From NCBI GenBank assembly GCA_029339195.1, contig JAPTJF010000022.1, forward strand, positions 218,871 through 282,870: DNA of 64,000 nt, written 5' to 3'. The notes beneath the pieces are model-generated. The model saw nothing but the letters and a program-made list of their open reading frames with translations. It made no database searches and was not told the DNA's origin. Source of the DNA: Micractinium sp. NFX-FRZ (lineage: Eukaryota > Chlorophyta > Trebouxiophyceae > Chlorellales > Chlorellaceae). The translations under genes were made by a program, and so were the position numbers. Positions 1 to 23,461 of this stretch are shown one piece after another (position 1 is the first letter of the stretch; each line of letters opens with the position of its first letter).

Positions 1-2990
1 CCGACCCCGCCCGCAAGCTGTACAGCGTGTGCGCCGACCATGTGTCGCTGTTCAGCGGGCTGACGGTGTACAGCTCTGGTGCGGGCGAGGTGACCTTCTT
101 GGGCGCCACCGACCGCGGGCCCAACCAGGTAGGTGCCAGCGGCCCTTGGGCATTCGAGGCAGCGCTGAGATCAGTTGCTGGCGCACGCTCAGCCGAAGGT
201 GCTCTCGCCCCAAGACAGGTTCTGTGCTTTCACATGCCCTGCTCCTCTTCCCGCCATGCTCCCCTCCCTCTCTCCCTCCCTCCCTCCCGCAGGGGTGCAA
301 GGACATCAAGGATGATGGCGGCCCCGTGGTGGCGGGCGGCAACTGCAAAGCCTCCAACACCACCGACTGCAACGACTGGGGGCGCGCCTACTACGGCCTG
401 GATGAGTTCCGCGGCCAGAAGATGAACCAGACCAGCACCTCCAACAACGGCCAGGGCTTCCCCGCGCCCCACTTTTCACCCGGCCTCATGGCGCTGCGAC
501 TGGACACTGCCAGCGGCATGCTGTCGGTTGGCCAGCACTGCTCGCTGTGGTACCTGGGGGCCGGCGGGGAGCGGGTGCCCGCCACGGGGCTGCCCAACTG
601 GCAGGCGGGGCCCTATGTGCCGGGACAGGGCGACAACGTGCCATGTGAGTGTTCACGGGTCGCTGGGGCGTGCGTGTGTGTGTGCTGTAGGAATGCGCGG
701 TGGCCACCTGAAAATGCATGCTGCTGGGCGGACGGGTGTGCAGGCACATGCTGGGCACTCTTGCCTGGCATGCAGCTTGCTGAACCCAGCTGCCCGCTCA
801 CATATTGTTTGAATTGGATGACACACACGTCGTGCGGGGCGGCATGTGATGTCGTGCAGACGGCGGCATGTGCACCAACCCCGTGGCCGCCGACTTCCCC
901 GTGGCGGCGCCCTTCTACAACCCCGCCGGCATCGATGTGGAGGTGGGGGATGAGCACAGGAAGCTGGGGTGTTGAATGTGCAGGGGTTGACTGCAGGTCA
1001 ACCCCAGGTAGGGCAGGCAGCCAGAGCTGGCTGCAGTGGCAGCAAGGGCATGCCTTCCTCTTCCGCTTCACACCGTCCTCCCTGCCTGCCCCTCACCTGC
1101 CGCAGGACATCCAAGTCATCCCGGGCACCTCCAACCCACGCCTGTGCCTGCTGTCTGACGAGTACAGCCCCTCTGTGGCCGTCGTCAACTGCGATGTCGA
1201 CCACGCCAGCTGCGGAGAGGTGGCCACCATGGGGGGTGCTGCTTTATGTCGTTTGCTACAGCCGCCGCTGCTGCCACTGCTGCTGCTGCTGCTGCTGCTT
1301 AAGGCTGCTGCTTAAGCTGCTGCTTAAGGAATTCCGTTGTTGTTGCCGCTGCTGCTGCTGCTGCTGTTGCCACTGCTGCTGCTGCTGCTGCGTATACCTT
1401 GCCTGCTGCGTATACCTCGCCTGCTGCACTCTTCCCCTTGACCAACTCCACTGCGTCCGCCTGCCCCTCTGTTTCCTCATCCCGCCACTCCCTTGCCGCA
1501 GATCAAGGTGCGCTACGTGCCGCAGTCCCTGGGCGCCGCCTCCTTCTTCGGCGGATTCACCGGCTATCCAGTCAGGGCTGTGCTGCCCAACTCCTTCCTG
1601 ATGCGGCGCGTCAACAAGGGCCTGGAGAACGCGGCTGTGTCGCCCGACGGCAAGAGCGCGTGGACCATGATGCAGTCTGGCATGGGAGACGACAGCGGCT
1701 CCTCACCCTACAAGGCCTCCTTCACACTCACCGCCGCCAAGCTAGACTTTTCCGACCCGATGGACGCCAAGCTGGCGGGGGTGTACCTCTACGTCGGTGC
1801 GAGGGCGTGGGGAGGGTGGTGGGCGAGATGGAGCAGGTGGGGCTGATCAGGTGGAAAGCTCGTTTTGTGAGGCAGGCGGTGGCATGCCAACACTTGAGAT
1901 GATTGAAACATACAATCACGAGCAAGCCGGCAGCCAAGGGGTGCGCATGCAACTGTGCCTGTTTGCATAGCTTGTAACATGCGATTGATGCCCCGGAGGC
2001 TCGCTGAGCGTGGCGGGGCAACCCTGCATGCCGCCCATCTGCTCCGCCCCTGCCCCCTCCCCGCCTACAGCCGACCACCCCGCCTCGTGGGGGCAGAACC
2101 CCTCCGCCAAGAGCATCTACTCCTCCTCCTTTGCCTGGGCTTCCCAGCACGTCACCTCCGCCTCCCTGCCTGCCGACTACCCTCTGCTGCTGGTCGGCGA
2201 GCGCGCCAAGGACCAGGTGGGCGGGTGGGATGCAACAAGGGAGGGCCGGGTGCCTCCCCGCCTTCTCGGCTGGATCTGCTTCCCCCGCTCAGCCATCTTC
2301 CGTGCAACTGCACCGCCGGGCTGTCCGCTCCTTGGTGCTCCACCCCCCTGCGCCATCTCTGCTTCCGCTCCTGCTCGACACCTCCCCCGGGCCTTTTCCT
2401 CTCCCCTGCACACCCTCCCTTTCTTTCCACACCCGTTCAACAGGTCAAGGTCTACTTGGCAGACTTCAGCCAGGCCACCGATGTGACCGGGCTGTACCCC
2501 AACACCACCGGCACTCCCGACCTCCTCTACTTCGACTCCACCACATTCAGTGAGCAGGGAGCTGGCTGGCAGGCTGGCCGGGGTGTGGGTGGGTGGGTGG
2601 GGTGGGTGGGTGGGGGGGCTGACGGTGGCATGTGGGCACTTTGCTGGCACTGACGGCCGCACCTGTACATGACGTCAGGTCCCACCCAACCCAACCTCTG
2701 CTGCAGCCAACTCCACCACCACCACCGCCGGCGTGGTGGCTGCCCTGAATGCCCGGGGCATCAAGCCCGCACGCAAGATCAGGGCCTTTGACACCGGCGT
2801 GCTGGCGGGTGCCACCGCCGCCCCCCTCATCCCCGGCTGGGTGGGGGCCACCGCCAAGCAGGAGGGCCTGGCTGCGCTGGGCGACTGCGTGGTTGCAATT
2901 GGTGACGACAATGACTTTGGGCTGGGGGGCAACCCACAGAGCCAGCTCAACATCGTGCGCCTGCCCACCTGCATCACCCAGCTCTACCAG
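1..2990 (+). other. Domain block: phytase-like esterase propeller 1
   Basis: Exons: 1-128, 293-644, 860-942, 1106-1219, 1502-1796, 2071-2216, 2444-2549, 2707-2990. Visible family signatures are DRGPNQ at the first exon end, a GLPNWQ segment, the acidic SDEYSPSVAVVN segment, and RRVNKGLENAAVSPDG followed by an MMQS segment. These match the order seen in the family called esterase-like activity of phytase (PF13449). The chemical activity of that family is poorly defined, so phytate hydrolysis is not claimed. The N-terminal part of this propeller is cut by the window edge. Confidence 0.8.
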
Positions 2991-5900
2991 GTGGGTGGGG
3001 GTGTGTGTGAGGGGTGCGGTGGGGCTGGGGGGCTGGGGGGAGATCACCCCCCATGATGCGTGGGGGGCGCAGGAGCCGTGTTAAGCGGGATGTGTATTGT
3101 GCGTGTGCCGGTGGGAGCATAACCGCCAGGCTGACTGACGTGGCTGGCATGCTGCTGCCTGCAGACGATGAGCCCGCCCGCCCCGGCCACCCTGGGTGTG
3201 CGAATCCTTCATGTCAACGACATCCACGCCAGGTGGGGGGGCATGCTTGACGCTGCAATGGCCGGCTGTTTGGCCGTCTAGCTTGCAACAGGCTCGCCGC
3301 GGCAGTCGCTTATGTTTGGCCTCCGCGCTGATGTCCCGTGCCTCCTCCCCTCCCTGCCCCCATCGTCACAACAGGATCGAGCCCGCCGACTCCAGCTACA
3401 ACCCTGTGACTGCAGCCCAGTACGGCACCGCCTATGGCGGCCTGGCACGGCTGGCTGGTTACGTTGCTGCGGCCCGCACCGAGGCTGCGGCTGCCGGCCA
3501 GGACATCCTGGTGCTGCACGCGGGTGAGGCCCTGGGAGCAGTGGGGCTGTTGGTGCTTGACAGGGACCGGCCTTGGTTGAAACCTGCTTGCGCCGCCACC
3601 ACAACCGCATGAATTGACCCTTCACCTTCTGCCCGCCCCGCCTGCTCCTCCCCGCCCACCCACCCACCCGCCCGATCAGGCGACCAGTACACGGGCACCA
3701 GCTGGGATTCGTACTACACGCGGCAGGGCAACTTCAGCGTGGCCGGCCTGCTCAACATGATCAACTTTGATGCCATGGCCGCCGGAAACCACGAGGTGCG
3801 TGGGGCCCAGGGGAAGGGTTGGCCCCGGAGTCGGTCGCCTGCTCCAGTGGCAGTGCCACATGCCTTCCGTGGGTGCCCGCTCGTCTCCTCACCCTCCCTG
3901 TTCCTGACCCGCTCTCCACCCCCTGCGCCTTCACCCCGTGTGTTCAGTTCGACTACGGCCCAGCCAACCTTGCCGGCTTCGCCAGCACCCTCGCCGCGCC
4001 CATCCTCAGCTGCAACGTGGATGTGAGCAAATCAGAGCTGGCCGGAAAGGTGGCGCCCTTCACCATCAAGACGCTGCCCGTCAGCGGCAAGAAGGTTGCC
4101 ATCATCGGCCTGTCCCCTCCCGACACCCAGATCACCAGCTCGCCAGGCAAGGCAGAGGGCTGCATGCCGACTGGGAGCATGCGGGGTGGCATCGAATGGG
4201 GTGGGGAGGCTGCGTAGCTAGTGGTAGCGTAAGCTTGCTGGGATGGGATTGAGATGGGAGCAGTGGCAGGGCGGGATGAGCAGGCAGGGGGGGTGGGGCG
4301 CACCATGCTCCCCATTTAAGGCCTTACGAAAGCTCCGCCCCTTGCCCCATCCCACCCTACTGCAGGCCCCAACGTCACCATCCTGAACATCGAGGCCTCC
4401 CTGCCCGGATGCATTGCGGACGCCAAGGCGCAGGGCGCCGACATGATTGTTCTGCTGGCGCATGTGAGAGGGGCGCGGGCTGCCTGCCGTGGGGTGATAG
4501 CACTCGCCTTTGGCTGGCCGCGGCGCTCATGCATGCTAGCGCTGTGGCGCTCTCAGCTTGGCCTACCCTGCCCGCTCATGCGTGCTTCATTGCCAGATGC
4601 TTCTCCAGTGTTGCCCGCTGCCTGACCGGCATCGCGCCTTCCCCTCCACACGCCGCCCCGCAGATTGGATACGACCGCGATCTACAGGTGGCTGGCAGCG
4701 CCGCCTTCCAGGAAGTGGACATTATCATCGGAGGCCACTCCCACTCCTTTTTGTACGGCGCCCCCGCCCCCGGCGGCCAGCCCCAGCTGCCCGGCAGCCC
4801 CAACCCCAACCTCACCAGCAGCGCGCGTGAGGGGGCGGTGGCCTCCGGCCCCTACCCCACCAACGTGCTCAACGGCAACAAGACCATCCCCATTGCCACC
4901 GCACTGTGGGGCTCCAGGTCGGTCAGCAACGGCCAAGCAGGATGAGGGCACTTTCTTCCTCCCTCCCTCGCCACCCTCAAGCTGCCCTCCCTCACACCCT
5001 CCCCGCTCGCCCGCCTCCTCACTAACCCTTCCCCCCGCCCCCCGCCTGCCTGTTTATGCAACTCGTGCAGGTATGTGGGCAGCCTGGCCACCGAGTGGGA
5101 CCAGTCGGGCGCCCTGCTCAACTACTCCGGCTCCCCCGTGCTGCTGGGAGGCAGCGGGTCGGTGAACCCGGTGACAGAGGACGCAGCAGTGGCGGCACGC
5201 GTGGCGGAGCTGCGGGTGCCCCTGGAGGCGCTGGCCGCCCAGGTTGTGGGTGAGTGAGGGCCGCTCTGCCTCTCCTCTTCTGCCCCTGCGCCCGCCTTGG
5301 CTGCCTGCCCACCCTCTTCTGGCCACCAGTCAACAGGCTGGCCAGCACATCCACCCGCCGCGATTGGTGGACAGTGCAGCGAGCCTGGCAAGCGGCTGCA
5401 GACACCATAGGTGCCTCTGCAGACACCATAGGTGCCTGCCATTCTCCGGCCCCGCCCCACCTCAGATCTTGTGCACCCCCTTATGCACTAACCCGCCTGC
5501 GGCCCCACCTGTGCAGGCCAGCTGGCCACCCCGCTGGTGGGCCACGCCGACCGCACCATCGGCCGCAACCAGGAGACCAACACCGGCAACCTGGTGTGCC
5601 AGGCACTCAAGTTTGCAGCCACCACAGGCGTGGTGAGCGGGGCGGGGTGGGGGTGCACCATGAGCGGGTGGCGGTGGTCTGGCTCTGAGGGTGGGTGGCG
5701 CTCCCTCGGACGATGGTGATCATTGTGAGGAGGGTGTTAGGGTTTAGGGTTGGGGGTCACCCCTGCAACAAAGGGTGGTGCTCAGTCTGAGTGCCCATCA
5801 CTGACGCTGGCGCCACCTGCCCTCTCCCCTGCTGCCTCCCCCCCCCCCCAGCCCGCCGCCGCCGCCGTGCTGGCCGCCAACCCGGGCCTGCCCGTGGTGT

Positions 5901-8900
5901 GCCTGGAGAATGCGGGCGGCCTGCGCGCCGACATCCCCGCCGGCAACGTCACCATGGCGCAGATCAACAGCGTGCTGCCCTTTGGAAACACGTGCGTGGG
6001 GGCGGGGCCGCTGCCTGGGGGTGTGGGGGAATTGCCTGGCAGTGCAACCGCAGCGTGCAGGCAGGCAGGCAGGGATGTCTGGCAGGCAGGGATGTCTGGG
6101 TTTGGCAGCCCAAAGCCGGCGCTTCTTGCAATGTGTGCCATGCGTGGCTGCCCTCTCACACATGGCACCCCCGCCGCCCCGCCCCCCTGCAGCTTTGTGC
6201 TCATGCGCATCTCCCCCGCCACCCTCATCTCCACCCTCAACAACGCGCTCTCCGGCTGGACCGGCGACAGCACCGCCGCCGGCCGCTTCTCCCAGGTGCG
6301 CCGGCCAGCGCTCTTTACACATGCCCCACAGTGTTGGAGGCATGTTGTCTGAGGCACTACGCCGCTCTGCCGATGCAGCATGCATGCATCCCACCGCCCC
6401 TCCCATCTCATCCTTCCTCCCCACCACTCGCGGCCCCGCGCAGATCGGCGGCATGCGCCTGGCCTTTGACCCCCGCCTGCCCGACAAGTTTGGCCGGCTG
6501 GTGGGTGCCACCCTCACCGACGCGCCCGGCACGCCCTCGCTGCTCACCTACACCGGCGACCTGATGCTGCTGACAACCAACTACATTGCCGCAGGAGGCG
6601 ACAAGTGAGTGCGGGGGTGCGCCGGGAGACGAGGGGGCACAGTGCAGCTGCCATGGCCTGCGCTGCCCTGTCGGCAGGTGCTGCTGGCTAAGCTGGGGGT
6701 TTTTGTATGTCCACTCTGACACCCGGTCCCGCTCACTAATTCTCTCGCTGACCCTCCCTATACGTCCGCCCCACGCCCCCCCTCTTCCCCCCCGCACCGC
6801 CCACCCGGCAGCTTCACCGCCCTGGCGGCCGTCAAGCCCCTGCTGGACACCAGCGTGGGTGACGCCCAGGTGCTGGCCGACTACATTGCCGCCAACTCAC
6901 CCGTCTCCGCCGCCAAGGACGGACGCATCGCCAACTGCGCCGCCACCCCCAACGAGCTGTGCCCTTCGTTCCTGAAGCTCTCCGACCTGCCCACCACAGC
7001 CTCCAGCAACGCCGCGGGCGAGGTGGTCGGCAAGTGAGTGGGATGGGTCTGCTGCTGGCGTGGCTGGCAGTGTACTAGTGTGATGTCCGTGCGAGCCTAA
7101 CGATTGTCTTTTGGCCCCAACTCCCGGGGGGCCCACCTCGCACATATCTTTAATTGGCCTTGATGCTCCACCCACACCCCAGTGGCAACTCTTGCCTTGC
7201 ACGCACCCGCCTCCCAAGCACGCCCCACTCCCCGGCCCCCTGCGGCAGGTTCCCCTCCACCGCCGCCTTCACCCTGTCCCAGCTCAACCCCGCGCTGGCC
7301 TCCACGCCCGGCGCGCTGGACGGCGCCGCCAGCTGCGTCGCCGACCCCACGGGCCGCCGCAAGTACAGCGTGTGCGCCGACCACGTGTCCCTGTTCAGCG
7401 GGCTGACGCTGTACAGCTCCAGCGCCGCCAATGGGCTGACCTTCCTGGGCACCACAGACCGCGGCCCCAACCAGGTAAGCTGTCTGGTGGCTGTAAGCGA
7501 GGTGCCAGCTCACAAACAGGATCCCGCCGCGCTCCCTCACCCCGCCCCACTCCCACGGGCGGCCCTCTGCATTGCTAGGCTAAATACATCATGCATCTCT
7601 GCTCCTGTTTTCTTGCCCGCCACCCAAGCAGGGGTGCAAGGACATCAAGGACGAGGTGGGGCCCGCCGCCGCCGGCGCCACCTGCTCCTCCACCAACGCC
7701 ACCGGCTGCAACGACTGGGGCAACGCGTATTACGGCGTGGACACCTACAAGGGCCTGAAGATGAACCAGACCAGCGCCTCAAACCTGGGCCAGGTGGGTG
7801 GGATGGGGGCGGTGTGGGCGTGGGTGGGCGAGTGAAGGAGCAGGTGCGTGTGTTTGTGTGACTGTGCTTGTGTGTGACTGACAGTGCTTGTGTGCATTGC
7901 AAGCGGGTGGATGGGGGGAGGGACGCCGGGCTGCACCACGCCTGCATGCCGCCCCGCCTGCCATGTGTGCAATACGACAGCCCCTACTGTGCGCTTGACG
8001 CCCCACCAACAACCGCCGCCTGCCACCCACCCCACCCCACCCCACCCTCAGGGCTTCCCCGTGCCCCGCTTCTCCCCCGGCTTCATGGCACTGCGCCTGG
8101 ACACCACCAGCGGCACGCTGTCGGTGGGCAAGCACTGCTCGCTGTGGTACCCAGGGGCCGGCGCGGAGCGGGTGCCCGCCACGGGCCTGCCCAACTGGCA
8201 GGCGGGGCCCTACCTGCCCAGCCAGGGCGACAACGTGCCGTGTGAGTGTTCGAGAGGGGAGGGCTGGGCAGGGGGTGAGGTGGGGTTGGGAGGGCCGCTT
8301 GGCTTGCTGCTCGGGTGGCAAGTGGCCACACACCAGTGCCTGTGGGGGGTGAGGCAGGGTGTTAGCCCAAGACTTAAATGCACGCCGTCGCCGCGCGCAC
8401 TGTTCTGCTTTCTGCTGGCAGTCTCTTAGTATGCCACGATCGCGCCCTGGGCATTGTGCAAGCCATGAGCACAGCAGTGTGCCAGCTGACTGTGCCCTGC
8501 TGCCCCCCCAATTGTCTTCTGCAGACGGCGCGATGTGCACCAACCCTCAGGCCGCCGACTTCCCGGTGGGAGACCCCTTCTACAACCCCGCCGGCATCGA
8601 CGTGGAGGTGAGGCTGCCGGCTGCTGGCTGCTGGGCGGGGCCGATTAGGGAGCTCCCCACCAGGGCAGGACGGGTAAACGCAGCGCGCCTGCTGTGTGGC
8701 AACCACGCACGGCAGGCCCCCACTCCCTGCCTCTTCTGGCGGCGCCCCCACGCATGCTGGCCCCTCTCCCGCCCCACCCCTGCCCGCAGGACATCCAAGT
8801 CATCCCGGGCACCTCCAACCCACGCCTGTGCCTGCTGTCTGACGAGTACAGCCCCTCTGTGGCCGTCGTCAACTGCGATGTCGACCACGCCAGCTGCGGA

Positions 8901-11900
8901 GAGGTGCGCTGGAGGCCGGGGGTGGGGAGGTTGACAGGGTAGACTCGGTTCACAAAGCAATGGGGAGGTGAACGGACATACACAGTTCACAAAGAGATGG
9001 GAGGCCAGGCCTTGTTTTGTCTGCGGCCAGCCGCAGTGCGGTGCGACCTGCCCATCACCTTCAAACAAACAGTGCCATCACCAGCAGTGTCTGCCTCGCT
9101 GCGCCTCGTTCCACCATGCCGCTCCGGCGTTTTGGCTGACATCGACCATCACACCTGCCCCTGCGCCTGCCCCTGTGCCTGCCCGCCCCTCCCCCGCCCC
9201 CCTGCTGCAGATCAAGGTTCGCTACGTGCCGCAGTCCCTGGGCGCCTTCTTTGCCGGCTCCAGCTTCACTGGCTCTGGCTACCCCGTCAAGGCTGTGCTG
9301 CCCAACGCCTTCCTAAAGCGGCGCAACAACAAGGGGCTGGAGAACGCGGCTGTGTCGCCCGACGGCAAGAGCGCGTGGACCATGATGCAGTCTGCCATGG
9401 GCGACGACGGCGGCTCCTCCCCACACAAGGCCTCCTTCACCCTCACCGCTGCCAAGCTGGACTTCTCTGACCCGATGGACGCCAAGCTGGCGGGGGTGTA
9501 CCTTTACGTCGGTGCGTCGCTGGCTGGGGAGGGTGGTGGGCGAGGTCGAGTGGATGGGTTTGATCAGGCGCAGAGCTACCCAGTTGTTTTGCGAGGCAGG
9601 CAGCAGCGAGGCCACCGCACAAGTCGAGGAAGCAGGGCAGATAGACACGGACAGATAGACATGCAAGTGGCGGCCAGGCAGTGCACATGCAACTGTGGTT
9701 GTCATGCACATTGCGTGCAATGGGTGCCAGGCCTACTTGCTCAGCAAGCTCAGACATGCATGCATGCCGCTCATCTGCTCCGCCCCTGTCCCCTCCCGCC
9801 CACCCCGCAGCCGACCACCCCGCCTCGTGGGGCCAGAACCCCTCGGCCAAGAGCATCTACGCCTCCTCCTTCTCATGGGCCTCCGAGCACGTGGCCGGCG
9901 CCAACCTGTCTGCCACCTACCCGCTGCTGCTGGTGGGCGAGCGCGCCAAGGACCAGGTGGGTGGGCGGGCAGGGGGTTGGGTGGGGCAGGGTGCCTGCTC
10001 ATCTCCTGGCTGCCTCTGCTGCACGCTCATCACGGACTGATGCTCTGCCGCATACGCAGCAGCTGATTTCTCTTGGGCACAGCGGCTGCTCCCCACAGCA
10101 GGCCTCATCAGCAGGCGGGCTCTCCCCTCCGACCCATGCCCCGGTGCTGACAAGGCGGGAGGCAGGATGCCAGCCTCCCAAACCCTGCCTGTCCCCCACT
10201 CCCAACGCAAACCCACCCCAGTCACCCCACCTTCCGCTCTGCATCCTCTCCACTTGCACGCTTGGCAGGTCAAAGCGCTCAGCTGACACCCCCTGCCCAC
10301 ACCCCTCAACCTCTCCCCATGCACCCTCCCCCTCCCCTCCCTGCCAACAGGTCAAGGTCTACCTGGCGGACTTCAGCCAGGCCACCGACGTGAGCGGGCT
10401 GTACCCCAACACCACCGGCACTCCTGACCTCCTGTACTTCGACTCCACCGCATTCAGTGAGTGTGCCTGCTGCTTGCCATGGCCGCGCTTGGTCCCTGGC
10501 GGACAATGGCTGCCGCCTGTCTGCCCGCCGTGTTTCCCTCTCTCCTTCCTTCCTTCCTGCTATGCTTGTGAGGCTGCACAGACTCGCGGCTGGTGATGGT
10601 CTCAATCCACTGGAAGCAAACAGTGGCGTGCGCGCAACTGACGCGATGCCGCCGTGCTGCTGCCCGCCATGCCTTCAACGCCAACCCGCCTCCCCTGCCC
10701 CACCCACGCCTCCTCCGCGCCGCCTCCTACAGCCAACTCCAGCACCACCACCGCCGGCGTGGTGGCCGCCCTGAGCGCCCAGGGCATCAAGCCCGCCCGC
10801 AAGATCAGGGCCTTTGACACTGGCGTGCTTGCGGGTGCCACCGCCGCCCCCCTCATCCCCGGCTGGGTGGGGGCCACCGCCAAGCAGGAGGGTCTGGCCG
10901 TGCTGGGCGACTGCGTGGTGGCGATTGGTGAGCAGCCGTGCCGGTCAAGACACGTGCCTGCTGGCCTGCTGCCATCGGATGGCTGGCCCAACACGTCTGG
11001 CTGGCCCCCTCCGAAGCCATATCGACCACCTGCTCTTGACAGCTGGCGGCGTGGCCTCGGCGTGACGTTCACTCGCCATTGCGCATCCAACTGTTGCCAC
11101 CGTGCTCTTCTGCCTTGCGCCCACAGGCGACGACGACGACTTTGGGCTGGGGGGCAACCCGCAGAGCCAGCTGAACATCGTGCGCCTGCCCACCTGCATC
11201 ACCCAGCTCTACCAGGTGGGTGCGTGTGTGTGGGCGGCGGTGGGTGGCATGGCGTGTGACGGGCTGGCCCTCTTCCCCTCTTCCCAGCGTGCCTGATGGT
11301 GCATGCTTGAATGTGCATGTCTGGCGCATGGCTGGTGCACCCACCCAGTGGCAGCCACCCGACAGCCGCTGCCTCCCTCTCCCCCCTGTGCAGACCCTGA
11401 ACACGGATGCCCTGACCCTCAACGCCACCCAGCTCACCGGCAATGGCGAGCGGGTGACTGTGAGCTGGGACCTGCAGCTGAGCGGCGCCCACCCCAGTGA
11501 CACCGTGGCACTCTACCTGGCCCCCGTCTCTTCCTCCTTTGCCTCCTCCTATGCCATCAAGTACAAGCTGGCGGGCGCCACCAGCGGCAGCGCCAGGTCA
11601 GCTGGACAATCTCCAAGTGCTGTGCTGCGCTGTGCAGTAGTTTGACTGTCAATCTTGCCAGCGTGCTGGCAGCAGCCAGCTTGCAAGCTTGCATGCACGC
11701 TGCTTGTGCCCCTGACCCGTCACACCCTCGTGCAATGCATCACTTGCCTGCTCGCCTTACCCACCCGCCCGGTCCTCCCCTCCCTCGCCCCTTCCCCTCG
11801 CCCGCCCGCAGCTTCCGCCTGCTCAACGTGCGGCAGGACTACCAGTTTGCGCTGGTCACCAACCGCACCGGCACCCCCACCGTGCTGGCCACCTCGCCCG

Positions 11901-14900
11901 TGCTCACCAACGCCGCACCCAACGAGCCGACGCAGCTGCACCTGACGCCCGGCACGGCCGCGTCCGAGTGAGGGGGTAGTTAGTGCAAGGGCCTCTTTCG
12001 TTGCACACCCAAGGGAGGCACGTATGCTGCCTCTGAGAAAGTTGAAGACACATGAAAGAACAGCGGCTGGTGTTAGCTGACCTTGCTTGCAAGAGCGAGG
12101 CCGTGTGTGGCCGCCAGCACTTTTCTTTCTCTCAGCATGAACCTGCCAGCCAACTGAGCCTCCGAATCTTGCTGGCATGCCTGCAGGATGACGGTGCAGT
12201 GGGTGACCAAGAACGCAGCACAGCCGACCGTGGTGTGGGGTGAGTGCCCGGGTGCCCTTGGATGCAGTGACATCACCAGGGCAGGGCTGGCTGGCTTCTG
12301 CACTGTTGCCGGTGCTGCTGCCTGCACAATGCCGCTAGCTGGTTGGTGCATCCAGTGTTGTATGCTTACACATTGCCGCTGCCACTGCTGGCCCAGCTGT
12401 CGACAATATCCACCCACCGCACCGGTGTGGCTGCAGGCTTGGCCCCCGGCAGCCTGGCCAGCAGCGCTGCTGCCGACTCGCGCACTTATTCGAAGCAGGA
12501 CATCAAGGACGGCTGCGGGTGGGGCAATGCAACCCTGCCTGCCAACGCCAACCTTGTGTCGGGTGCGCTGGCCGCCAGCGTGGGGGAGGGAGGTGGGGTG
12601 GTGAGGGCGCCATGTGGGGCTTGGGGACGCCATGTGGGTGGTGAGGATGCCATGCGGGGCTTGGGGACGCCATGTGGGTGGTGAGGGCGCCATGTGGGTG
12701 GTGAGGATGCCATGTGGGTGGAGAGGGCAACATGTGCGTGGTGAGGATGCCCAGCGGACTTCTCTCTACAGCTTGCTCGGCGCAGTGCTTGTGCCTCTTC
12801 ACACGGGCATGTGCTCATCACATGTGTTCCTCACAATGCCTGACTGACTGCTCACCGATGCTGCAGTCGGCAAGGGCTGGCTGGCACCTGGCACGCTGCA
12901 CCTTGCCAGGATGACGGGCCTGCAGCCCTCCACCACATACTACTACCAAGTGACGGACCAGGTGGGTGGGTGCAAGTGGGCGCGTGCATGGGCAGTGAGG
13001 TGCACCCCAGGCAGGGCCACTCTAGCTTCGGTAGGCAAGCAGTCCGCGGGAGCTGCAGCGTGCCGCCTGGAGCTGCAGCCGGTGCTAGGCTCATAAACCC
13101 TACCTTTGCCAGCCCCACCAGCCCCACCAGCCCCCACAACTCATGCGCATGGGGAGGCACCCTCTCACCGGCCGCTGGTGCATTTGTCGCCCCGCCCTGC
13201 AGGCCAGCGGCGCCGCTAGCCCCGTGCATTCCTTCACCACCGCCCCCGCCGCCGGCGACGACGCCACCCTCACCATGCTGCTGGCTGCCGACACCGGCAC
13301 GGGAGAGAACAACGACAACGCGTTGCGCCCCACCGCTCACAAGACCGTGGGGGCCTACGCCGTCTTCAAGGTGGGGCGGTCCATCACTGCCTGCTGGCTG
13401 GAAATGCCACCCAGCCCGCCGCTCAGCCGGTAGCAGCACAGCTGGCCAAGCGCTGGTTATGAGCGCTCTATGCTAGCATACACCTGCCAGGTAGCTTCCC
13501 TGGGTGACCGACCCAGCCTCCCCCGGTCCTCCTCACCCCCACCGCCTGCCCCTCCCGTTGAACTCCCAGGCCATGAACGCCGCCGCCGCCGCCAGCCCCA
13601 CCCCCGTCATGTCCTTTATCAACGGAGACATCAGCTACGCAGGTGGGCAGGGCAGGGCAGGGCAGGGCAGGGCAGGTTCCAGCTGCTGCCGACGTTCGCA
13701 TGTTGGGGCGGCGCCTGTGTGGCACTCTGCCTGGCAGTGTGGCAGCACCCCGCCCCGCTTGCAGTTGGTTCTCACTCCCCCCGCCCCCGCCCCTGCACCT
13801 GCCCCCGCTCCCCCCTGCAAGCAGATGGCGTGCTGTACGACTGGCAGCAGATGATGGACCACGCCGCACCCATGATGGCCTCCGTACCCATCCTCACCAC
13901 CCCGGGCAACCACGAGGCACCTGGGCCTGCTTGCTTTGGCTTGGGTTTGGCGGGCAAGGCGGAGCGCAGTGCACCGCGCGGTCCGGGTGCATGAGTGGCG
14001 GCGATGTCTTGGCAACTGTGCCCTCCCTGCATCGCTTTTTGTTGTACCCGCACGTGTATACGTGGTGCTGGTTGCAAGCCACGCGTGCATTGCGCCGCGC
14101 CACCTCAGCTTGCTGCCTCAAAGCTCAGACACAGCTAACAACTGCCAGCTTGCTAACCGCGCTCCCGCCCTTGCTCACTTCCCTGCAGCGCGACTATTAC
14201 TACTCCTCTGGCGGCGTGGTGGTCGACTCGGGCGACGCCATCAAGGACAGCGGCACACCAAAGTGCGTGTGCCGACAGTCTCTGTGCTGCGGCTCGCTGC
14301 TTGTCGGGGTAACGCTGCCTTGGTGCTCTTGGGCCCGAGCCCCGTCCAGTCACCCCTCGGTGCCTTGACGCATCACCCCTTGGTTGCTGCCGCAGGTATG
14401 GCGGCGAGTGCGGCATTCCCTACGAGGCGCTGTTTGTCAACCCCAACACCACGCGGGCACAGCAGTGGCACAGCATTGACGTCGGACCCGTCCACTTCCT
14501 GCAGCTGTCCAGCGGTGAGCGAGGCTGGGGATGGGCGGTGCAACGCCTGCACCAGTGCCCTGCAGCCTGGGCCTTTAACGAGGCGGGGACGTGGTGGTGG
14601 TGTGCGGCGGTACAACGGAATGCTCTAGCCGCTGCTCGCAAAAGGGCCCTCTTGAGGCCACGTGTGACCCCTCATCTCCCCGCTGTGCCCCGCCTGCAGA
14701 GCTGGACATGCGCCGCGGCTCCCCCCAGCAGCAGTTTGCCATCGCTGACCTGGCGGCTGTCAACCGCACCAAGACGCCCTTTGTCGTCGTCTCCTGGCAC
14801 CGTCTCATGTACTCTGCCGCCGCCGACACCGATTCGGGTGAGCTCCGCACAGCGGGTAGGGGGCCATGCGGAGTGCCCTGCTGCTCCCCAGCCAGGAGCT

Positions 14901-17900
14901 CGCGCCCTCGCTCCTTGCTCCTTGCTCCCTTGCCTGCCACTCTCAGGCTGACGGACAGGCTGGCGGCACACGTGGCCTGAGGCTGGGCTGCCCTGCACCT
15001 GGCCCACCCTCGCCCCCGACCAACCCTGCCCTGCCTGGCACGACCCGCCCCTCGCTGCCCCCCCTTGCAGACTACATCTGGGGCGACGTGTTCATGATGC
15101 AGCAGGGGTGGGACGACGTGCTGTACTACGGCGGCGTGGATGCCGTGTTCAACGGCCACTTCCACGTGTACCACAGGTGCCGCGCTGCGTGCTGTGCTTG
15201 ATTTGTGCTGTGCTGTGCTGCGTGCTGTGCTGTGCCATGGAGTGCATTGCGTGTGCTGCACTGGTTCCTGCAGGGCTGGCCGTCAAGTATTGGTTGCTCG
15301 CCCTGCCACCTGGCAGGCCTGCCGTCTTGAGTTCAAATACGCCGAGCCCAGCCGCACTGCGCCCCCACAACTCACCCCACTCACCCCACCCGCGCCCCAC
15401 CCGACTGCGCAGGACCTGCCCCGTGTACAACCGTGCTTGCGTGCCCGACCGTGCCGACGGCGTGCGGGGCGCCCCCGTGCACATCAACACCGGCTGGGGC
15501 GGCCCCTCCTCTGCCGACAAGCTGCCCCTCAACGCCAACGGCCAGTCGGTGCACCCGTACATCGAGGTGACCAGCGGCGCCACCCAGCGCTTTGGGTTTG
15601 TCAAGATGACGGTCAACCGCACCCACATGGTGCTGGACTCCATCCCAGTGGATTGGAACTACAACACAAGTGAGGGGGCGGGGGGCGGGGGCCAGGCAGG
15701 AGCTGCCGAGTGGTGGGCTGGGCAGGTGCCAGCCAAGACATTTGGGGTGGGTCTGGGTCTGGTTGTGTGCCGGTGGTCGGGCACAGCGCCTGCCCACACT
15801 TTCTGTCTGCCACCTGGCGTGCCCTGCCGCGCCTGCTTGTTCGCAGCGCAGCCGCCGCCCTGCCACTCCCTGCCCCACCCGTGCCCCCTGCCCTGTGCCC
15901 CGGCAGCCTCCAAGACGTACTACGGCAGCATGGCTGCGCTTGCGCCGCTCGACTCCATCACCCTCAAGGCCGGCCGGGCAGCCCGCTCCAGCGTCAAGCT
16001 GGCCATTGTGCACGTCAATGACATTCATGCCAGGTAGAGGTGCCGGCACCTGGGTGCCAGCAAGGTGCATTCTGTACTGAGGCGGAGACTAATGCCATGC
16101 CCGCACGGGCGGCCCACAAAAAGGCTTCCACGCAACTCGCTCCTTGACCCACCCCGCCGCCTGCCTCCCTGCCTCTCTCTCTCGCCCCCTGCCCCCCCTG
16201 CAGGATCGAGCCTGCCGACTCCAGCTTCAACCCGGTGCCCGCGGCCAAGTACGGCACCGCCTATGGCGGCCTGGCACGCCTGGCTGGCTTCATCGCCGCC
16301 GCACGCTCCCAGGCGGCGGCCGCCGACCAGGACATTCTGGTGCTGCACGCGGGTGAGGCCCTGGGAGCAGTGGGGTTGCTGCAAAACGGCAACAGCGACC
16401 GGCCTTGCTCTGCAATCTGCTTGCGCCACCGGCTCCAGACTGCACCCACACCCGCATGCATTGCTTGCTCCTTCACCTCCTGCTGTGCCCATCTGCACCT
16501 CCCTCCCCGCCCGCCCACCCGAGCAGGCGACCAGTACACGGGCACCAGCTGGGATTCGTACTACACGCGGCAGGGCAACTTCAGCGTGGCAGGACTGCTC
16601 AACATGATCGGCTTTGATGCCATGGCCGCCGGAAACCACGAGGTGCGGGCGAGAGGGTTGGCTGTGGTGGAACAGAGCAACCGGCGGCACTCGCTCGCCT
16701 TTTTTTTTTGTGGCAGTGGACCGTTGGTGCCCGCTCGTCTCCTCGCCCTCCCGGCTCTCAAGGCGCTCTGCAACCTCCGCTTCCACCCCTGGCCCGCAGT
16801 TTGACTACGGCCCAGGCAACCTTGCCGGCTTTGCCAGCACCCTGACTGCGCCCGTCCTCAGCTGCAACGTGGATGTGAGCAAATCCGAGCTGGCAGGCAA
16901 GGTGGCGCCCTTCATCGTCAAGACGCTGCCGCGCAGCGGCAAGAAGGTTGCCATCATCGGGCTGTCACCGCCCGACACCGCCGTCACCAGCTCGCCAGGC
17001 AAGGCTGGGGTCTGCATGCATATGCTGGTGGCAGTGCAGGATGAGCAGGCAGGGTGGGTGGGGCAGGGTGGGGCGCCCCATGCCCCCCGTCCAAGGCGCG
17101 ACGGAAGCTCTGCCCCTTGCCCCATCCCCACCGTACTGCAGGCCCCAACGTCACCATCCTGAGCATCGAGGCCTCCCTGCCCGGATGCATTGCGGACGCC
17201 AAGGCGCAGGGCGCCGACATGATCGTACTCCTGGCGCATGTGAGAGGGGCACGGGCTGCCTGCCGTGTGGTGTGGTGTGAACTTGCTGGCGGCAAGGGTG
17301 CCTTGCCTGGTGCTGTGCGCGCTCACTGAGCCATGCGTGCCGCCCCCCTGCACTGGTGCCGTTTGACAGTTTCCTCGCTGGGCGACCTGCCGCTCCCTCC
17401 CGCAACCCTGCCCCGCAGATTGGGTACGACCGTGACCTGTCTGTGGCTGGCAGCGCCGCCTTCCAGGAAGTGGACATCATCATCGGAGGCCACTCCCACT
17501 CCCTTTTGTACGGCGCCCCCGCCCCCGGCGGCCAGCCCCAGCTGCCCGGCAGCCCCAACCCCAACCTCACCAGCAGCGCGCGTGAGGGGGCGGTGGCATC
17601 CGGCCCCTACCCCACCAACGTGCTCAACGGCAACAAGACCATCCCCACTGCCACCGCACTGTGGGGCTCCAGGTCTGTGGGGGGGGGGGGCGGCCGTGGA
17701 GCATTGCCAACTCCCCCCTCCCTCCGTGCCTCCCTTGCTGCCTCGAGCTGCCCTCCCTCCCACCCTCCCCGCTTGCCCGCCTCCTCACTTACCCTCCCCC
17801 CGCCGCCTGCCCTCCCCCTTGCTGTCATGCGCTGCAGGTATGTGGGCAGCCTGGCCACCGAGTGGGACCTGGCCGGCTCCCTCCTCACCTACTCCGGCGC

Positions 17901-20900
17901 CCCCGTGCTGCTGGGAGGCAGCGGGTCGGTGAACCCGGTGGCTGAGGACGCCTCAGTGGAGGCACGCGTGGCGGAGCTGCGGGTGCCCCTGGAGGCGCTG
18001 GCCGCCCAGGTCGTGGGTGAGTTGAGCCTCCTCTTGTCTTTTACAGCCTGACCACACGCCTGCCTGGCTATCCAAGTAAGCTGCAGTTTTTAGCCCGCCC
18101 TCCTACTAGCGCGCCCGCCCAACCGAACCACCTGTGCGCCTGCCCTGCTCGGATGCCTTCCTGCCCGCCCGCCTGCCTGTCCCCCAACCCGCCACAACGG
18201 GCAATGCCCGGCCTCCACCACCACCGTGGCATGCAGGCGAGCTGGCCACCCCTCTGGCTGGCCACGCCGACCGCACCATTGGCCGCAACCAGGAGACCAA
18301 CACCGGCAACCTTATCTGTGCGGCGCTCAAGTATGCAGCTCAAAACACCGTGGTGAGTGGCGTTCATGTCTAGGGGTGTGTCTGTGTGTCTCTGCGGCCT
18401 GTGCAGGAGCACGTCCATCGTTTCAAGTTTGCATTTCAAAGAAAGCTTACCTTGCCACCCAGTCCAACAATCCCTGCTTGCTTGCCAGACGTGCACCCTT
18501 GACCTCCCTGCACACCTGGTGTGCCACCCGGCCGCCCTGCTGACCTGACCCAGGCACCGCCCCTGCTCTGACACACACTCTGTGACACCGGGGCCACCTG
18601 CGCTCTGCCCTGCTGTGCGATGCAGCCTGCCGCCGCCGCCGTGCTGGCCGCCAACCCAGGACTGCCCGTGGTGTGCCTGGAGAATGCGGGCGGCATCCGC
18701 TCCGACATCCCCGCCGGCAACGTCACCATGGCGCAGATCAACAGCGTGCTGCCCTTTGGAAACACGTGCGTGGGACAACGGTTGTGGGAGACAGCTCATG
18801 CTACTGCAAGCAGCAATGCTCAAGGCATTCGGTCGGCAGCAAGCGGAGCGCGCTGTCCATGCTCGAGCGCTGCTGCTTGAACGCCCAGCATGCATGCGGT
18901 TGACCACCTGCTCATGCGCACCCGCCCACCCCCCGTGCAGCTTTGTGCTCATGCGCGTCTCCCCCGCCACCATGCTCTCCTCCCTCAACAACGGCCTGTC
19001 TGGCTGGACTGGCGACAGCACCGCGGCGGGCCGCTTCCCTCAGGTGCGCGGGAGGGCCTGGCTGGGAGGGCAGGGGCAGAGACCGTCTCGCAGGGGCGGG
19101 GGAAATTTTGACACTGGGCGTTGTGTGGGGAGCGCCATTCACCGCACAATCGGCACGGCCGGGTGGAGTGTGCAAGGGGCGGTTCAGCATGTCAGCGGCC
19201 AGCACCGCCTCATTTGAACCTCCGTTGGCCGTGTTGCCTCGCAGATTGGCGGCATGCGCCTGGCCTTTGACCCCCGCCTGCCCGACAAGTTTGGCCGGCT
19301 GGTGGACGCCACCCTCACCGATGCCCCCGGCACGCCGTCGCTGCTCACCTACACCGGCGACCTGCTGCTGCTCACCACCAACTTTGTGGCCGCGGGCGGG
19401 GACAAGTGAGCGGGCGGGGGGTGTGCCAGGAGACGAGGGGGCACTGTGCAGCTGCCGTGCCCTGCGCTGGCCTGTTGTCGGATGGCTGGGGGGCAAGCTG
19501 GGGGGTCTGTGGCATGGAACCCCCATCCATGACATGAGGCCCCACCCCGCTCACCAATCCTTTCAACACCCGCCCTTTGCAACTGCACCCCCCACCGCCC
19601 CCCCGGCAGCTTCACCGCCCTGGCGGCCGTCAAGCCGCTGCTGGACACCAGCGTGGGTGATGCCCAGGTGATGGCCGACTACATTGCCGCCAACTCACCC
19701 GTCTCCGCCGCCAAGGACGGACGCATCGCCAACTGCGCCGCCACGCCCAACGAGCTGTGCCCTGTGATCGAGTCGCCGCCCCCGCCTCCAGCACCGTCTC
19801 CCCCCTCCCCTCCGCCGCCCAGCCCCCAGCCTCCCAACCCGTCCCCTCCGCCGCCCAGCCCTCAGCCTCCCAGCCCCTCACCTCCTCCCCCCAGCCCCAA
19901 GCCTCCCAGCCCCTCACCTCCTCCCCCCAGCCCCAAGCCTCCCAGCCCCTCACCTCCGCCTCCCAGCCCCAAGCCTCCCAGCCCCAAGCCTCCGCCTCCC
20001 AGCCCCAAGCCTCCCAGCCCCCGCCCGCCCTCTCCGCCGCCCCCCAAGAAGTCACCTCCTCCCCCCAAGCCCTCTCCCCGCCCGCCGCCCACTCCTGTGG
20101 CCTTCACCGTCGTCAACGTGAAGACAGCCACGGCCTCCGCATCTTCAGTTGGCAGCCGCATTGTTGCACGCAGGACGGTGCGCTACCCGGCCGCTCAAGC
20201 CATCGACAGCAAGGCCTCCACTTTCTTCATGAGCGCGGCTCAGGCAAGCGAGGAGAGGAGGGGAGGGTGGAAAAGAGTTGGGTGGCGCCAGCCTGCAGTG
20301 AGCCTCAACAAGAGGGTACCACCCGCGGATGCAAGCGGCGCCTGCGACCTCCCCCGCACATAACAACAAGGGGTGGGTGGCCTACAGGCCAGCTCAGCGC
20401 TCCACACCTGCCAGCTCAGTGCACCATCCCCTGCTTCTGTCCCCTCACCTCACAGGCGTCCCCCTGGCTCAGCATCGACCTGGGCAGGCGGTACGAGGTG
20501 CAGCGGGTGGTCATCACTGCAGCTGCCGCCAACCTGGGCGCCCCCACCTACACCTCCGCCCACACCTTCACTGTGCGAGTGGGGGATGTCAAGAACGCCC
20601 CCAGCACCGCCAAGCCAGACACCGGGCTGGACCGCAGGTGGGGCCACGGGCGGCGCAGCACAGCAGGGAGGCAGCTCGGTGAAGGGCAGGGCATGCGTTG
20701 TGGGTGCCGTGTGTGCTGCGCTGCGCTGCGCTGCACACTGCTGCCGTGGCTGCAGTCTCAGCTGCCCCTCACTCTCCCAATCCCTCCCCCCCCCGCCCGG
20801 GCTGCCATGCCTGCTGCTGCAGCGCTGGCGCGCTGTGCTCCACCGCCGCCGGACCCCTGAGGCCGTCCACCAGCGTGACCTGCGGGCGCACGGCTGGCGG

Positions 20901-21291
20901 CCGCTTCACCGCCACCCCCAAGGCGGGGCGCTACGTGTCGGTTGAGCTCAAGTCCAGCGTGGCGCGGGCCTTTAGCCAGCTGGCGGTGGCAGAGGTGGCC
21001 ATCTACGCCCGAGGTGCGTGCAGGGAGGGGGGGCAGCCGTGGGCACGCATCAGCAGCAGTGTTTGTGCAGTGCAGGTGGGGCGTGCGGACGGTTTGAGGA
21101 GGTGGTGAGGAGCCTGTGCAGCGCTGTGTTGGCTTCCACAACACCACGCCCTGCGAGACGGAACCTTTTCCTGCTTCCCGGCTGTGCCCGGCACAGTGGC
21201 GGGGGCCCAGCCACTCCTTGCTGCCTCTGCCTCTGCCCCTGACCCCCCGCCCCCTACCCCCTTGCACCCCGATGCTGCAGCCTTGAAGTAA
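1..21291 (+). CDS. Giant multidomain secreted phosphohydrolase, 5' end outside the window
   Basis: I recognise one continuous gene of 58 visible exons. After splicing, the 9,245 nt read without a stop from the window edge (first full codon at 3) to TAA at 21289-21291, about 3,080 codons. Domain order with window-relative residues is: phytase-like propeller 1 (1-502), 5'-nucleotidase 1 (503-1104), propeller 2 (1105-1641), purple acid phosphatase (1642-2195), 5'-nucleotidase 2 (2196-2796), SPPPP hinge (2797-2905), discoidin-like domain (2906-3080). The join between the first nucleotidase and the second propeller is an ordinary phase-2 intron (donor 7034, acceptor 7248), with no stop, start or spacer, so this is one gene rather than two. 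The family knowledge is that these enzymes cleave phosphomonoesters and nucleotides outside the cell. I infer secretion from domain type, the many N-x-S/T sites and the wall-type hinge; the signal peptide would lie upstream of the window. The terminal 11-nt exon (21281-21291) is the least certain. Confidence 0.85.
1262..1396 (+). repeat. CTG-rich microsatellite in an intron
   Basis: Two islands of CTG/CCG triplets are separated by a GCTTAAG-containing spacer in the intron 1220-1501 of the phosphatase gene. The equivalent intron of the second copy (8904-9210) lacks them. Confidence 0.85.
3165..7033 (+). other. Domain block: UshA-type 5'-nucleotidase 1
   Basis: Exons: 3165-3232, 3375-3523, 3680-3795, 3948-4146, 4366-4463, 4664-4917, 5071-5249, 5517-5632, 5852-5991, 6193-6295, 6444-6604, 6812-7033. 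The dinuclear-metal signatures appear in the correct order: HVNDIHAR, GDQYTG, GNHEFDYG, LLAHIGYD and GGHSHSF. The C-terminal substrate domain follows with LENAGGLRADIPAG and LPFGNT. The intron after 4146 uses a GC donor (CCAG|GCAAGG). All metal-site residues expected for the family are present, so the domain looks catalytically intact. Confidence 0.88.
7249..11215 (+). other. Domain block: phytase-like esterase propeller 2
   Basis: Exons: 7249-7474, 7632-7793, 8052-8241, 8525-8607, 8790-8903, 9211-9511, 9811-9956, 10351-10456, 10733-10927, 11127-11215. This is a close duplicate of the first propeller with the same intron positions, plus two introns that the first copy lacks (7794-8051 and 10928-11126). 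The exon at 8790-8903 is base-for-base identical to the one at 1106-1219. Confidence 0.82.
12601..12760 (+). repeat. 20-bp minisatellite, about 8 copies, in an intron
   Basis: The unit is close to GTGAGGATGCCATGTGGGTG and is repeated head to tail with a few substitutions, inside the intron 12563-12866 of the purple acid phosphatase block. Each unit carries a GTGAGG donor-like string. Confidence 0.9.
13643..13677 (+). repeat. GGGCA short tandem repeat
   Basis: A run of GGGCA units begins at the splice donor of the exon ending at 13642, so it makes up the start of that intron. Confidence 0.8.
15907..19769 (+). other. Domain block: UshA-type 5'-nucleotidase 2
   Basis: Exons: 15907-16033, 16204-16352, 16527-16642, 16800-16998, 17142-17239, 17419-17672, 17838-18016, 18237-18352, 18626-18765, 18941-19043, 19245-19405, and 19610 onward. 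It has the same motifs as copy 1 (HVNDIHAR, GDQYTG, GNHEFDYG, LLAHIGYD, GGHSHSL, LENAGGIRSDIPAG, LPFGNT) and the same intron positions and phases, including the GC donor after 16998. The starts of several introns are still alignable with copy 1, so the duplication is recent or kept similar by gene conversion. Confidence 0.88.
19770..20097 (+). other. Proline-rich (SPPPP/SPKPP) hinge
   Basis: About 109 codons of SPPPP, SPQPP and SPKPP repeats lie inside the long exon 19610-20243, between the second nucleotidase and the lectin-like domain. In green algae and plants such repeats are hydroxylated and arabinosylated extensin-type wall modules. I infer that it acts as a rigid, wall-interacting spacer. 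The opposite-strand and shifted-frame open frames here are by-products of the repeat. Confidence 0.85.
20098..21291 (+). other. Domain block: discoidin/fucolectin-like C-terminal domain
   Basis: Exons: end of 19610-20243, then 20456-20637, 20823-21013 and 21281-21291. The segment AIDSKASTFFMSA...ASPWLSIDLG...VQRVVI and the later ...TCGRTAGGRF...GRYVSVEL...EVAIYA are typical of galactose-binding-like (F5/8 type C or fucolectin) folds. The intron at 20244 has a GC donor (CAG|GCAAGC). A carbohydrate- or wall-binding role is inferred. Confidence 0.72.
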
Positions 21292-22468: not shown

Positions 22469-23429
22469 TCAAGTGCACGCGTTTGCAGTGCAGCGCCCAG
22501 CGCGGTTGCGCAACTGTGCATGCGTCGGCACTGCGGCACCCAGAACAGGCGCTGCTGAGTGAGCTGCTGCCTGCCGCGCGCTCTGGCCGCCAAAGGCTGC
22601 TATCGGACTGCAGGCATCACAAGGGCAGAGCAGCGCGCTGTCAGGACGATGCATGGTGTGTCTGTGCATGCCCGCCCGAACCAAGTGCTGGACCACAGCA
22701 TGCACAGCAGGGCATGGCAGGGGCCCGCTTTCGAATGTGCGTGCTGCATGTCCAGGGCAGGTCGTCATGCATGGCTCCAGGGTGCCGCAGCAAAGTGCAC
22801 CCAAGCTGAGCGTGCGGCCCAGCTGGTGCCGAGGGTAGATCCCCCCTCCCCTCCCAATGTAGTCACCTCCGGAGCTTGGGAGGAGTGAGTCGCAATGGGC
22901 GGAGCTGTACTGGGTGCCACATGTGGCCGCAGGGGCTGCGCATGCTGCGGCGACGGCAGCCCCTGCGCTGCGGCTGCTGGTCTGGCTGCTGTGGCTGAGG
23001 GTGCGCAGGCTGGGCAGGCTGCTGGTGGGAGGCGGCAGGCTGGGCAGGCTGCCGCAGTGCGTGGTGGCAGCGCTGGCATGGTGAGTGGGGGGCTGTGGGC
23101 ACGGGGCCTGCGTGGTGGGCTGGCAGGCATGCTGCGTGCGGGGGCCTCCTTCCGACCTCAGCAGGCTCTCCAGGTAGGAGCTGTGCGCCTCCAACTGCAG
23201 CTGCAGCCGGCGCTGGGCCTGCAGGCCATGGAGGGGCGGGTGCAAACAGCAGGGCTGTTGGGTGCATGGGACAGGCCGGCCGGCAGACCGGCTGCGAGGC
23301 GGCGCAGGCAGGCAGAGGGGCAGGCAGGCGTGGGATGATCCAGTGCCACTGCAGGCAAGCTGGCAGGCAGGCAGGTGCAGACAGGCACGGGCGGGCGCAG
23401 GCAGTTGGGCAGGCAGGCATGGGCAACCG

Positions 23430-23461
<32 letters not shown>

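What the first reader, a model, noticed from the sequence alone, without database searches (positions are those of the whole stretch)
1..21291. A single gene encodes a phosphate-scavenging polyprotein with five phosphohydrolase or esterase-like modules
One uninterrupted spliced frame of about 3,080 codons joins phytase-like propeller, 5'-nucleotidase, phytase-like propeller, purple acid phosphatase, 5'-nucleotidase, wall-type proline hinge and discoidin-like lectin domain. Bacterial fusions of a propeller with a 5'-nucleotidase are known. I do not know of a described protein combining two such pairs with a purple acid phosphatase and a carbohydrate-binding tail. The metal ligands of all three phosphatase sites look intact. 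It could be a wall-tethered assembly attacking nucleotides, phosphomonoesters and other organic phosphate.
Basis: partly seen in the sequence, partly recalled or inferred. Interest (0 to 1): 0.88.

Follow-up and report, generated by a model that had tools for sequence, protein, structure and literature searches.

The report
Giant algal phosphate-scavenging multi-enzyme protein
A genome that is likely green-algal carries one gene predicted to make a roughly 330-kilodalton secreted protein that strings two 5'-nucleotidases, a purple acid phosphatase and two propeller domains onto a wall-type tail, which would likely let the cell strip phosphate from nucleotides and perhaps DNA at its surface.

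Summary
The gene starts 455 bp upstream of the window with one signal peptide and ends at 21,291: 59 predicted coding exons, 3,211 codons. Pfam confirms every module. Three of five module junctions need no splicing: two lie inside single exons, and the purple acid phosphatase and second 5'-nucleotidase share one open frame. The other two cross introns of 174 and 178 bp with no new signal peptide and no TGTAA. All three phosphatase sites keep their metal-ligand motifs. Duplicated modules share introns, dN/dS near 0.33 by NG86. The purple acid phosphatase matches PPD1 best, an enzyme that cleaves diphosphonucleotides and DNA; this suggests a nucleotide-to-phosphate line. "Phytase" is not supported for the propellers: a modelled relative matches E. 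coli YjiK best, then assorted propellers including lactonases. The tail recurs on six other contigs, among them behind a subtilase, a PA14 protein and another purple acid phosphatase. A MYB-CC regulator gene lies tail-to-tail downstream. No relative of the whole protein was found. The single transcript and all activities are untested.

The parts
1..2990 (+). Propeller 1 (PF13449); starts upstream of the window at -377, after the signal peptide (-455..-378)
   Evidence: Pfam E 2.8e-10, 41 bits vs cut-off 27.6
3165..6965 (+). 5'-nucleotidase 1 (Metallophos + 5_nucleotid_C), preceded by a linker of about 11 aa
   Evidence: PF02872 6.7e-21, PF00149 2.1e-12; best solved match 2z1a, 4.9e-63
6812..7033 (+). 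Single exon holding the 5'-nucleotidase 1 C-terminus and the propeller 2 N-terminus, with no Met or signal peptide between
6966..11215 (+). Propeller 2 (PF13449), about 85% identical to propeller 1
   Evidence: Pfam 1.8e-12
11394..15977 (+). Purple acid phosphatase, PPD1-like, seven ligand residues in place; corrected exons 13825-13916 and 14189-14262; the exact end within 15907-15977 is set by eye
   Evidence: PF16656 9.7e-22, PF17808 3.9e-8, PF00149 4.1e-10, PF14008 2.3e-5; 3zk4 4.5e-47
14952..16037 (+). Open frame (361 aa) that holds both the end of the purple acid phosphatase and metal motif I of 5'-nucleotidase 2; it stays open whether or not the predicted 237-bp intron 15670-15906 is removed
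   Evidence: ORF 14952..16037
15978..19763 (+). 5'-nucleotidase 2, 88-89% identical to 5'-nucleotidase 1
   Evidence: PF02872 1.2e-20
19610..20243 (+). Single exon joining the end of 5'-nucleotidase 2, the proline hinge and the tail start (GC donor at 20,244)
19764..20096 (+). Proline-rich hinge, 111 aa, 65% proline, pI 11.3
20097..21291 (+). Discoidin-like (F5/8 type C) tail, pI 10.8, to the stop codon
   Evidence: PF22633 2e-7, 32 bits vs cut-off 27.8
2991..3164 (+). Junction intron propeller 1 / 5'-nucleotidase 1
   Evidence: no TGTAA, no signal peptide
11216..11393 (+). Junction intron propeller 2 / purple acid phosphatase
   Evidence: no TGTAA, no signal peptide
21661..21665 (+). TGTAA, chlorophyte-type polyadenylation signal (recalled), 370 nt after the stop; the other two on the + strand in -700..22,500 are at 1,973 and 7,492, inside introns
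22867..25133 (-). MYB-CC (PHR1/PSR1-type) transcription factor gene, tail-to-tail neighbour
   Evidence: PF00249 4.7e-8, PF14379 1.4e-7; TIGR01557 2.4e-24; model

Best explanation
One gene of a likely green alga encodes, in one predicted spliced frame, a predicted secreted multi-enzyme protein that likely works as a wall-tethered nucleotide-dismantling line. Shown from sequence: a single signal peptide; propeller, 5'-nucleotidase, propeller, PPD1-like purple acid phosphatase and 5'-nucleotidase following each other with short linkers; then a basic proline hinge and a discoidin-like tail that also occurs on other predicted proteins of the genome. Inferred: hinge and tail hold the protein in the cell wall; the purple acid phosphatase cuts pyrophosphate and phosphodiester bonds of nucleotides or DNA; the 5'-nucleotidases next to it release phosphate and nucleosides for uptake; the propellers act as lactonase/esterase-like modules or as rigid spacers. 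The gene most likely arose from a propeller-5'-nucleotidase unit that duplicated in tandem, with a purple acid phosphatase inserted before the second 5'-nucleotidase and a tail captured at the end. That it is switched on by phosphate starvation is inferred from the enzymes and from the MYB-CC neighbour.
For: Junction anatomy and signals. Domains. Ligand motifs: NDIHA, GDQ, GNHE, LLAHI, GGHSH in both 5'-nucleotidases; ADTG, GDISY, GNHE, VSWHR, GHFH in the purple acid phosphatase. Best solved match is 3zk4, diphosphonucleotide phosphatase 1 (4.5e-47), against 5e-22 and weaker for the other purple acid phosphatases, and the extra FN3 domain passes its cut-off, 33.8 vs 33 bits. PPD1 cleaves diphosphonucleotides, phosphodiesters and DNA in vitro (PMC4062093, passages; that 3zk4 is this enzyme is recalled). 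A wall-localised soybean purple acid phosphatase, GmPAP1-like, is induced by Pi starvation and its overexpression helps growth on dNTP (PMC5853315, passages). Purifying selection between copies: NG86 dN/dS 0.092/0.271 and 0.071/0.223; introns at the same column and phase in 8 of 9 (propeller) and 11 of 11 (5'-nucleotidase). Single-phosphatase genes elsewhere in the genome: a 5'-nucleotidase with signal peptide on C420 whose last open frame ends in a GPI-like tail, and a purple acid phosphatase with hinge and the same tail type on C53. Tail on 7 contigs. MYB-CC neighbour.
Against: No transcript, proteomic or activity data. Two junctions rest on predicted splicing. No P1BS site (GNATATNC) in the 10 kb upstream and no excess in the window (4 found, 2.39 expected, 22 of 100 shuffles reach it). 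A furin-like R-A-A-R (motif recalled) lies between the purple acid phosphatase and 5'-nucleotidase 2; R-X-X-R occurs four times in the protein and only this one is at a junction, so cleavage into pieces is possible. No activity can be assigned to the propellers. No relative of the whole protein shows that the architecture is conserved. The gene-finder was trained on the gene itself.
Confidence: 0.6

Rival explanations
1. The locus is two or three adjacent genes (propeller 1; 5'-nucleotidase 1 with propeller 2; purple acid phosphatase with 5'-nucleotidase 2 and tail) that the model joins wrongly.
For: Two junctions cross introns (2,991-3,164 and 11,216-11,393), so joining there is only predicted.
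Against: Gaps of only 174 and 178 bp, phase-compatible, with no TGTAA in them; the second and third 'genes' would lack signal peptides although their domains are extracellular types (best 12-residue hydropathy 1.14 and 0.41 against 3.09 at the real start). The other three junctions need no splicing.
Confidence: 0.07
2. The chain is made as one precursor and then cut by proteases into separate wall enzymes, so the fusion serves co-delivery in fixed ratio and not a physical assembly line.
For: R-A-A-R between purple acid phosphatase and 5'-nucleotidase 2 (motif recalled).
Against: Of four R-X-X-R sites in the protein none is at another junction; linkers are short.
Confidence: 0.22
3. The protein clears extracellular nucleotide signals or degrades foreign DNA as defence, with phosphate supply as a by-product.
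For: 5'-nucleotidase 1 matches CD73 as well as 2z1a; the NAD nucleotidase model nadN is the best NCBIfam match, though under its cut-off (253.7 vs 436 bits); PPD1's authors suggest a role in pathogen defence (PMC4062093).
Against: MYB-CC neighbour; the multi-module enzyme YfkN of Bacillus belongs to the phosphate-starvation regulon (PMC8475336).
Confidence: 0.17
4. Assembly artefact or decaying gene.
For: Unnamed draft assembly of 838 contigs; no read data available.
Against: Copies differ by 11-15% in protein with purifying selection and shared introns; no N runs; the modelled frame has no internal stop in 3,211 codons.
Confidence: 0.03

Closest known systems
Bacillus subtilis YfkN (trifunctional nucleotide phosphoesterase; natural cpdB-ushA fusion)
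   Same: Secreted, wall-displayed through sortase YhcS, two metallophosphoesterase modules acting on nucleotides in one chain, raised under phosphate starvation (PMC8475336, PMC3222306, passages)
   Different: Bacterial and sortase-anchored; no purple acid phosphatase, propeller or discoidin tail named in the passages; the whole algal protein scores 226.4 bits against that family's cut-off of 2554
PPD1, diphosphonucleotide phosphatase/phosphodiesterase of yellow lupin (3zk4)
   Same: Closest solved relative of the purple acid phosphatase module, same ligand motifs, FN3 domain
   Different: Stand-alone enzyme forming a hexamer
CD73 / Thermus 5'-nucleotidase (2z1a)
   Same: Same two-domain 5'-nucleotidase
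   Different: Single module; CD73 is GPI-anchored (recalled)
Bacterial 5'-nucleotidase/propeller fusions (L068, L085; both titled Verrucomicrobia)
   Same: Both modules in one ORF
   Different: Order 5'-nucleotidase then propeller; a purple acid phosphatase was not sought; 2 of 53 loci
C53 gene of the same genome
   Same: Purple acid phosphatase (46% identical) + hinge + tail of the same type
   Different: One phosphatase only, with copies of an unnamed module

Membership tests
5'-nucleotidase (CD73/UshA type), both modules | Metallophos followed by 5_nucleotid_C above cut-off | tested here: met
5'-nucleotidase (CD73/UshA type), both modules | Two-metal ligand motifs and AMP-pocket motifs (motif names recalled) | tested here: met
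   alignment to 2z1a shown for module 1; module 2 has the same motif strings apart from conservative L/I/V changes
5'-nucleotidase (CD73/UshA type), both modules | AMP hydrolysis | not testable with these tools
   no assay
Purple acid phosphatase | Five motifs with seven ligands | tested here: met
PPD1-type purple acid phosphatase | Additional N-terminal FN3-like domain | tested here: met
   PF17808 33.8 vs 33 bits on the corrected model; 30.5 bits on the earlier one; only just met
PPD1-type purple acid phosphatase | Diphosphonucleotide/DNA cleavage | not testable with these tools
   no assay
PF13449 (esterase-like activity of phytase) | Profile score above cut-off | tested here: met
   41 and 48.2 bits vs 27.6
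Beta-propeller phytase | Fold and site of a solved phytase | tested here: inconclusive
F5/8 type C (discoidin-like) | Profile score above cut-off | tested here: met
   PF22633 32 vs 27.8 bits; PF00754 27.8 vs 28.2, just under
YfkN family (PRK09419) | NCBIfam curated cut-off | tested here: not met
   whole protein 226.4 vs 2554 bits

The most novel reading that the evidence does not exclude
A single-polypeptide extracellular metabolon of a eukaryote: a wall-anchored chain whose purple acid phosphatase opens DNA, dinucleotides and nucleotide polyphosphates and hands the mononucleotides to 5'-nucleotidases fused next to it, held apart by two propellers, so that phosphate and nucleosides are freed at the cell surface. 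I know of no other multi-enzyme phosphate line in one chain in algae.
Probability: 0.3. Interest if true: 0.8.

Novelty: new variant of a known kind. Interest (0 to 1): 0.63.

Why it matters
Algae live on scarce dissolved phosphate, and how they use organic phosphate such as nucleotides and DNA matters for blooms and nutrient recovery. A single chain with three intact phosphatase sites and a wall-type tail would show that eukaryotes, like Bacillus with YfkN, can bundle nucleotide-degrading steps into one surface protein, here in a larger and different combination. It makes channelling against simple co-delivery directly testable, and points to a tail cassette that could be tried for displaying enzymes on algal walls.

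Tried and rejected
Full-length homologue search: none at E <= 0.001 among the 2,602 scored candidates (candidates by rule 0.55-1.75 times the query length). Unit search: 7 hits, all covering about half of the query, with 5'-nucleotidase domains and none with PF13449. Propeller search: 4 hits, one eukaryotic (P0009) with a signal-peptide-like start and similar N-terminus. Only the candidates sharing most words are scored, so rarity is not proven. Separate-gene reading rejected for the reasons under rivals. P1BS sites near the promoter: none. Pherophorin-type PF12499: nothing, and no control rang, so uninformative. Solved structures for the propeller by sequence: none up to E 1; for the tail one match at E 0.087, not used. 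My idea that exon 15,907-16,033 encodes the last strand of the purple acid phosphatase is by eye only: Pfam's C-terminal profile stops before it (52 of 63 positions) and blastp with the C53 paralogue stops at residue 560 of 592, just before that exon; the junction claim therefore rests on the open frame. Foldseek with the propeller relative gave only weak matches at low TM-score, mostly varied propellers. Beta-propeller phytases are not among the 50 rows, which does not exclude them. Print: the listings shown by searches of an open-licence library name no such protein; the most direct, 64 and 66, returned 1 and 0 papers. Passages of four papers were read, none in full.
Full report
Where it is. 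The genome gives 49 exon-level matches to the chlorophyll a/b-binding family and has MYB-CC genes, so I take it for a green alga (inference). Upstream DNA was fetched.

The gene. The start codon lies at window -455 (L010:9545), followed by MAPQRRVALLLLAVLAACSAGQAAAQ, a signal peptide by its hydropathy. A dynamic-programming search with codon and splice tables, refined by hand, gives 59 coding exons ending at 21,291. Replacing one exon edge in the purple acid phosphatase by a GC-AG intron (13,917-14,188) gives 3,211 codons and 331.8 kDa. That change restores GNHERD...GGECG, as in PPD1, turns two separate PPD1 alignments into one (E 1.2e-44, 4.5e-47), and lifts the FN3 domain over its cut-off (30.5 to 33.8 bits). 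Residue numbers are for the earlier 3,242-residue model. With free choice of start the same chain is best (score 1524; reverse strand 10; 12 shuffles 3-18). The tables were trained on this gene, so the contrast is a consistency check.

The junctions. 5'-nucleotidase 1 and propeller 2 meet inside exon 6,812-7,033: the residues after the junction (SFLKLSDLPTTASSNAAGEV) match the mature N-terminus of the whole protein (SYLKLSDLPTTPSSNAVGEV), with no Met or signal peptide. The end of the purple acid phosphatase and motif I of 5'-nucleotidase 2 lie in one open frame, 14,952-16,037, which stays open whether or not the predicted 237-bp intron is removed. Exon 19,610-20,243 carries the end of 5'-nucleotidase 2, the hinge and the tail start. 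The other two junctions are introns of 174 and 178 bp without TGTAA. TGTAA occurs three times on the + strand from -700 to 22,500: at 1,973 and 7,492, inside introns, and at 21,661, 370 nt after the stop.

The modules. Propellers are 85% and 5'-nucleotidases 89% identical, under purifying selection (NG86 dN/dS 0.34 and 0.32; YN00 and ML lower), with 8 of 9 and 11 of 11 introns of copy 1 at the same column and phase in copy 2, which has two more propeller introns; the ninth of the propeller set is the boundary intron itself. So the units duplicated after most introns were gained. 5'-nucleotidase 1 matches Thermus 5'-nucleotidase and CD73; the purple acid phosphatase matches PPD1 best. Hinge and tail are basic (pI about 11), the other modules acidic (pI 5.0-5.8).

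The parts elsewhere in the genome. No other propeller of this kind was found. A lone 5'-nucleotidase with a signal-peptide-like start lies on C420; its last open frame ends in a hydrophobic, GPI-like stretch. A purple acid phosphatase, 46% identical over the aligned part, with hinge and a tail of the same type lies on C53. The tail occurs on 7 contigs, this one included. I modelled 5 of the other 6, not C582: subtilase on C81 and PA14 on C206 by Pfam, PA14-like on C197 by eye and a proline hinge on C248, purple acid phosphatase on C53. The tail is thus attached to varied predicted proteins, which favours a general holding role; that the holder is the wall is inferred from the proline hinge.

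The neighbour. On the minus strand, tail-to-tail, lies a MYB-CC transcription factor, the type of PHR1 and PSR1, regulators of phosphate starvation. PF14379 was found once elsewhere in the genome (C294); the window's own copy was probably missed there because its motif is split by an intron. The adjacency was noticed after the fact and no P1BS site supports it.

How it would work. PPD1 cleaves the pyrophosphate bond of diphosphonucleotides, phosphodiesters and DNA in vitro, and a wall-localised soybean purple acid phosphatase helps growth on dNTP. Such cuts yield mononucleotides, the substrates of 5'-nucleotidases. Having both kinds of site in one chain at the wall would give complete phosphate release close to the membrane. 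Every catalytic step here is inferred from family knowledge.

What it is like. Bacillus YfkN is the closest known idea: a natural fusion of two nucleotide phosphoesterases, secreted, wall-displayed and raised under phosphate starvation. The algal protein is not a member of that family by its cut-off and adds a purple acid phosphatase, two propellers and a different tail. I file it as a new variant of a known kind.

Noticed in passing
window 22867-25133 (-): MYB-CC (PHR1/PSR1-type) regulator gene tail-to-tail with the giant phosphatase gene.
   Followed up: partly
C53:163841-174174 (L028, L029): Predicted gene with repeated copies of an unnamed module of about 130 aa (no Pfam match) on both sides of a purple acid phosphatase, then hinge and discoidin-like tail.
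   Followed up: partly
C81, C206, C197, C248, C582 (L034-L041): Same type of discoidin-like tail at the end of a subtilase, PA14 proteins and others: a shared cassette.
   Followed up: partly
C420:50736-55041 (L026, L027): Stand-alone 5'-nucleotidase with signal-peptide-like start and GPI-like C-terminus, likely the single-module relative.
   Followed up: partly
window 12596-12751: Short tandem repeat with a 40-bp shift (87% identity over 116 bp) inside an intron of the purple acid phosphatase part.
   Followed up: no
P0009: A eukaryotic database protein (eukprot) with a signal-peptide-like start and a related propeller, 375 aa long; the rest of its gene may show whether the fusion exists in another species.
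   Followed up: no
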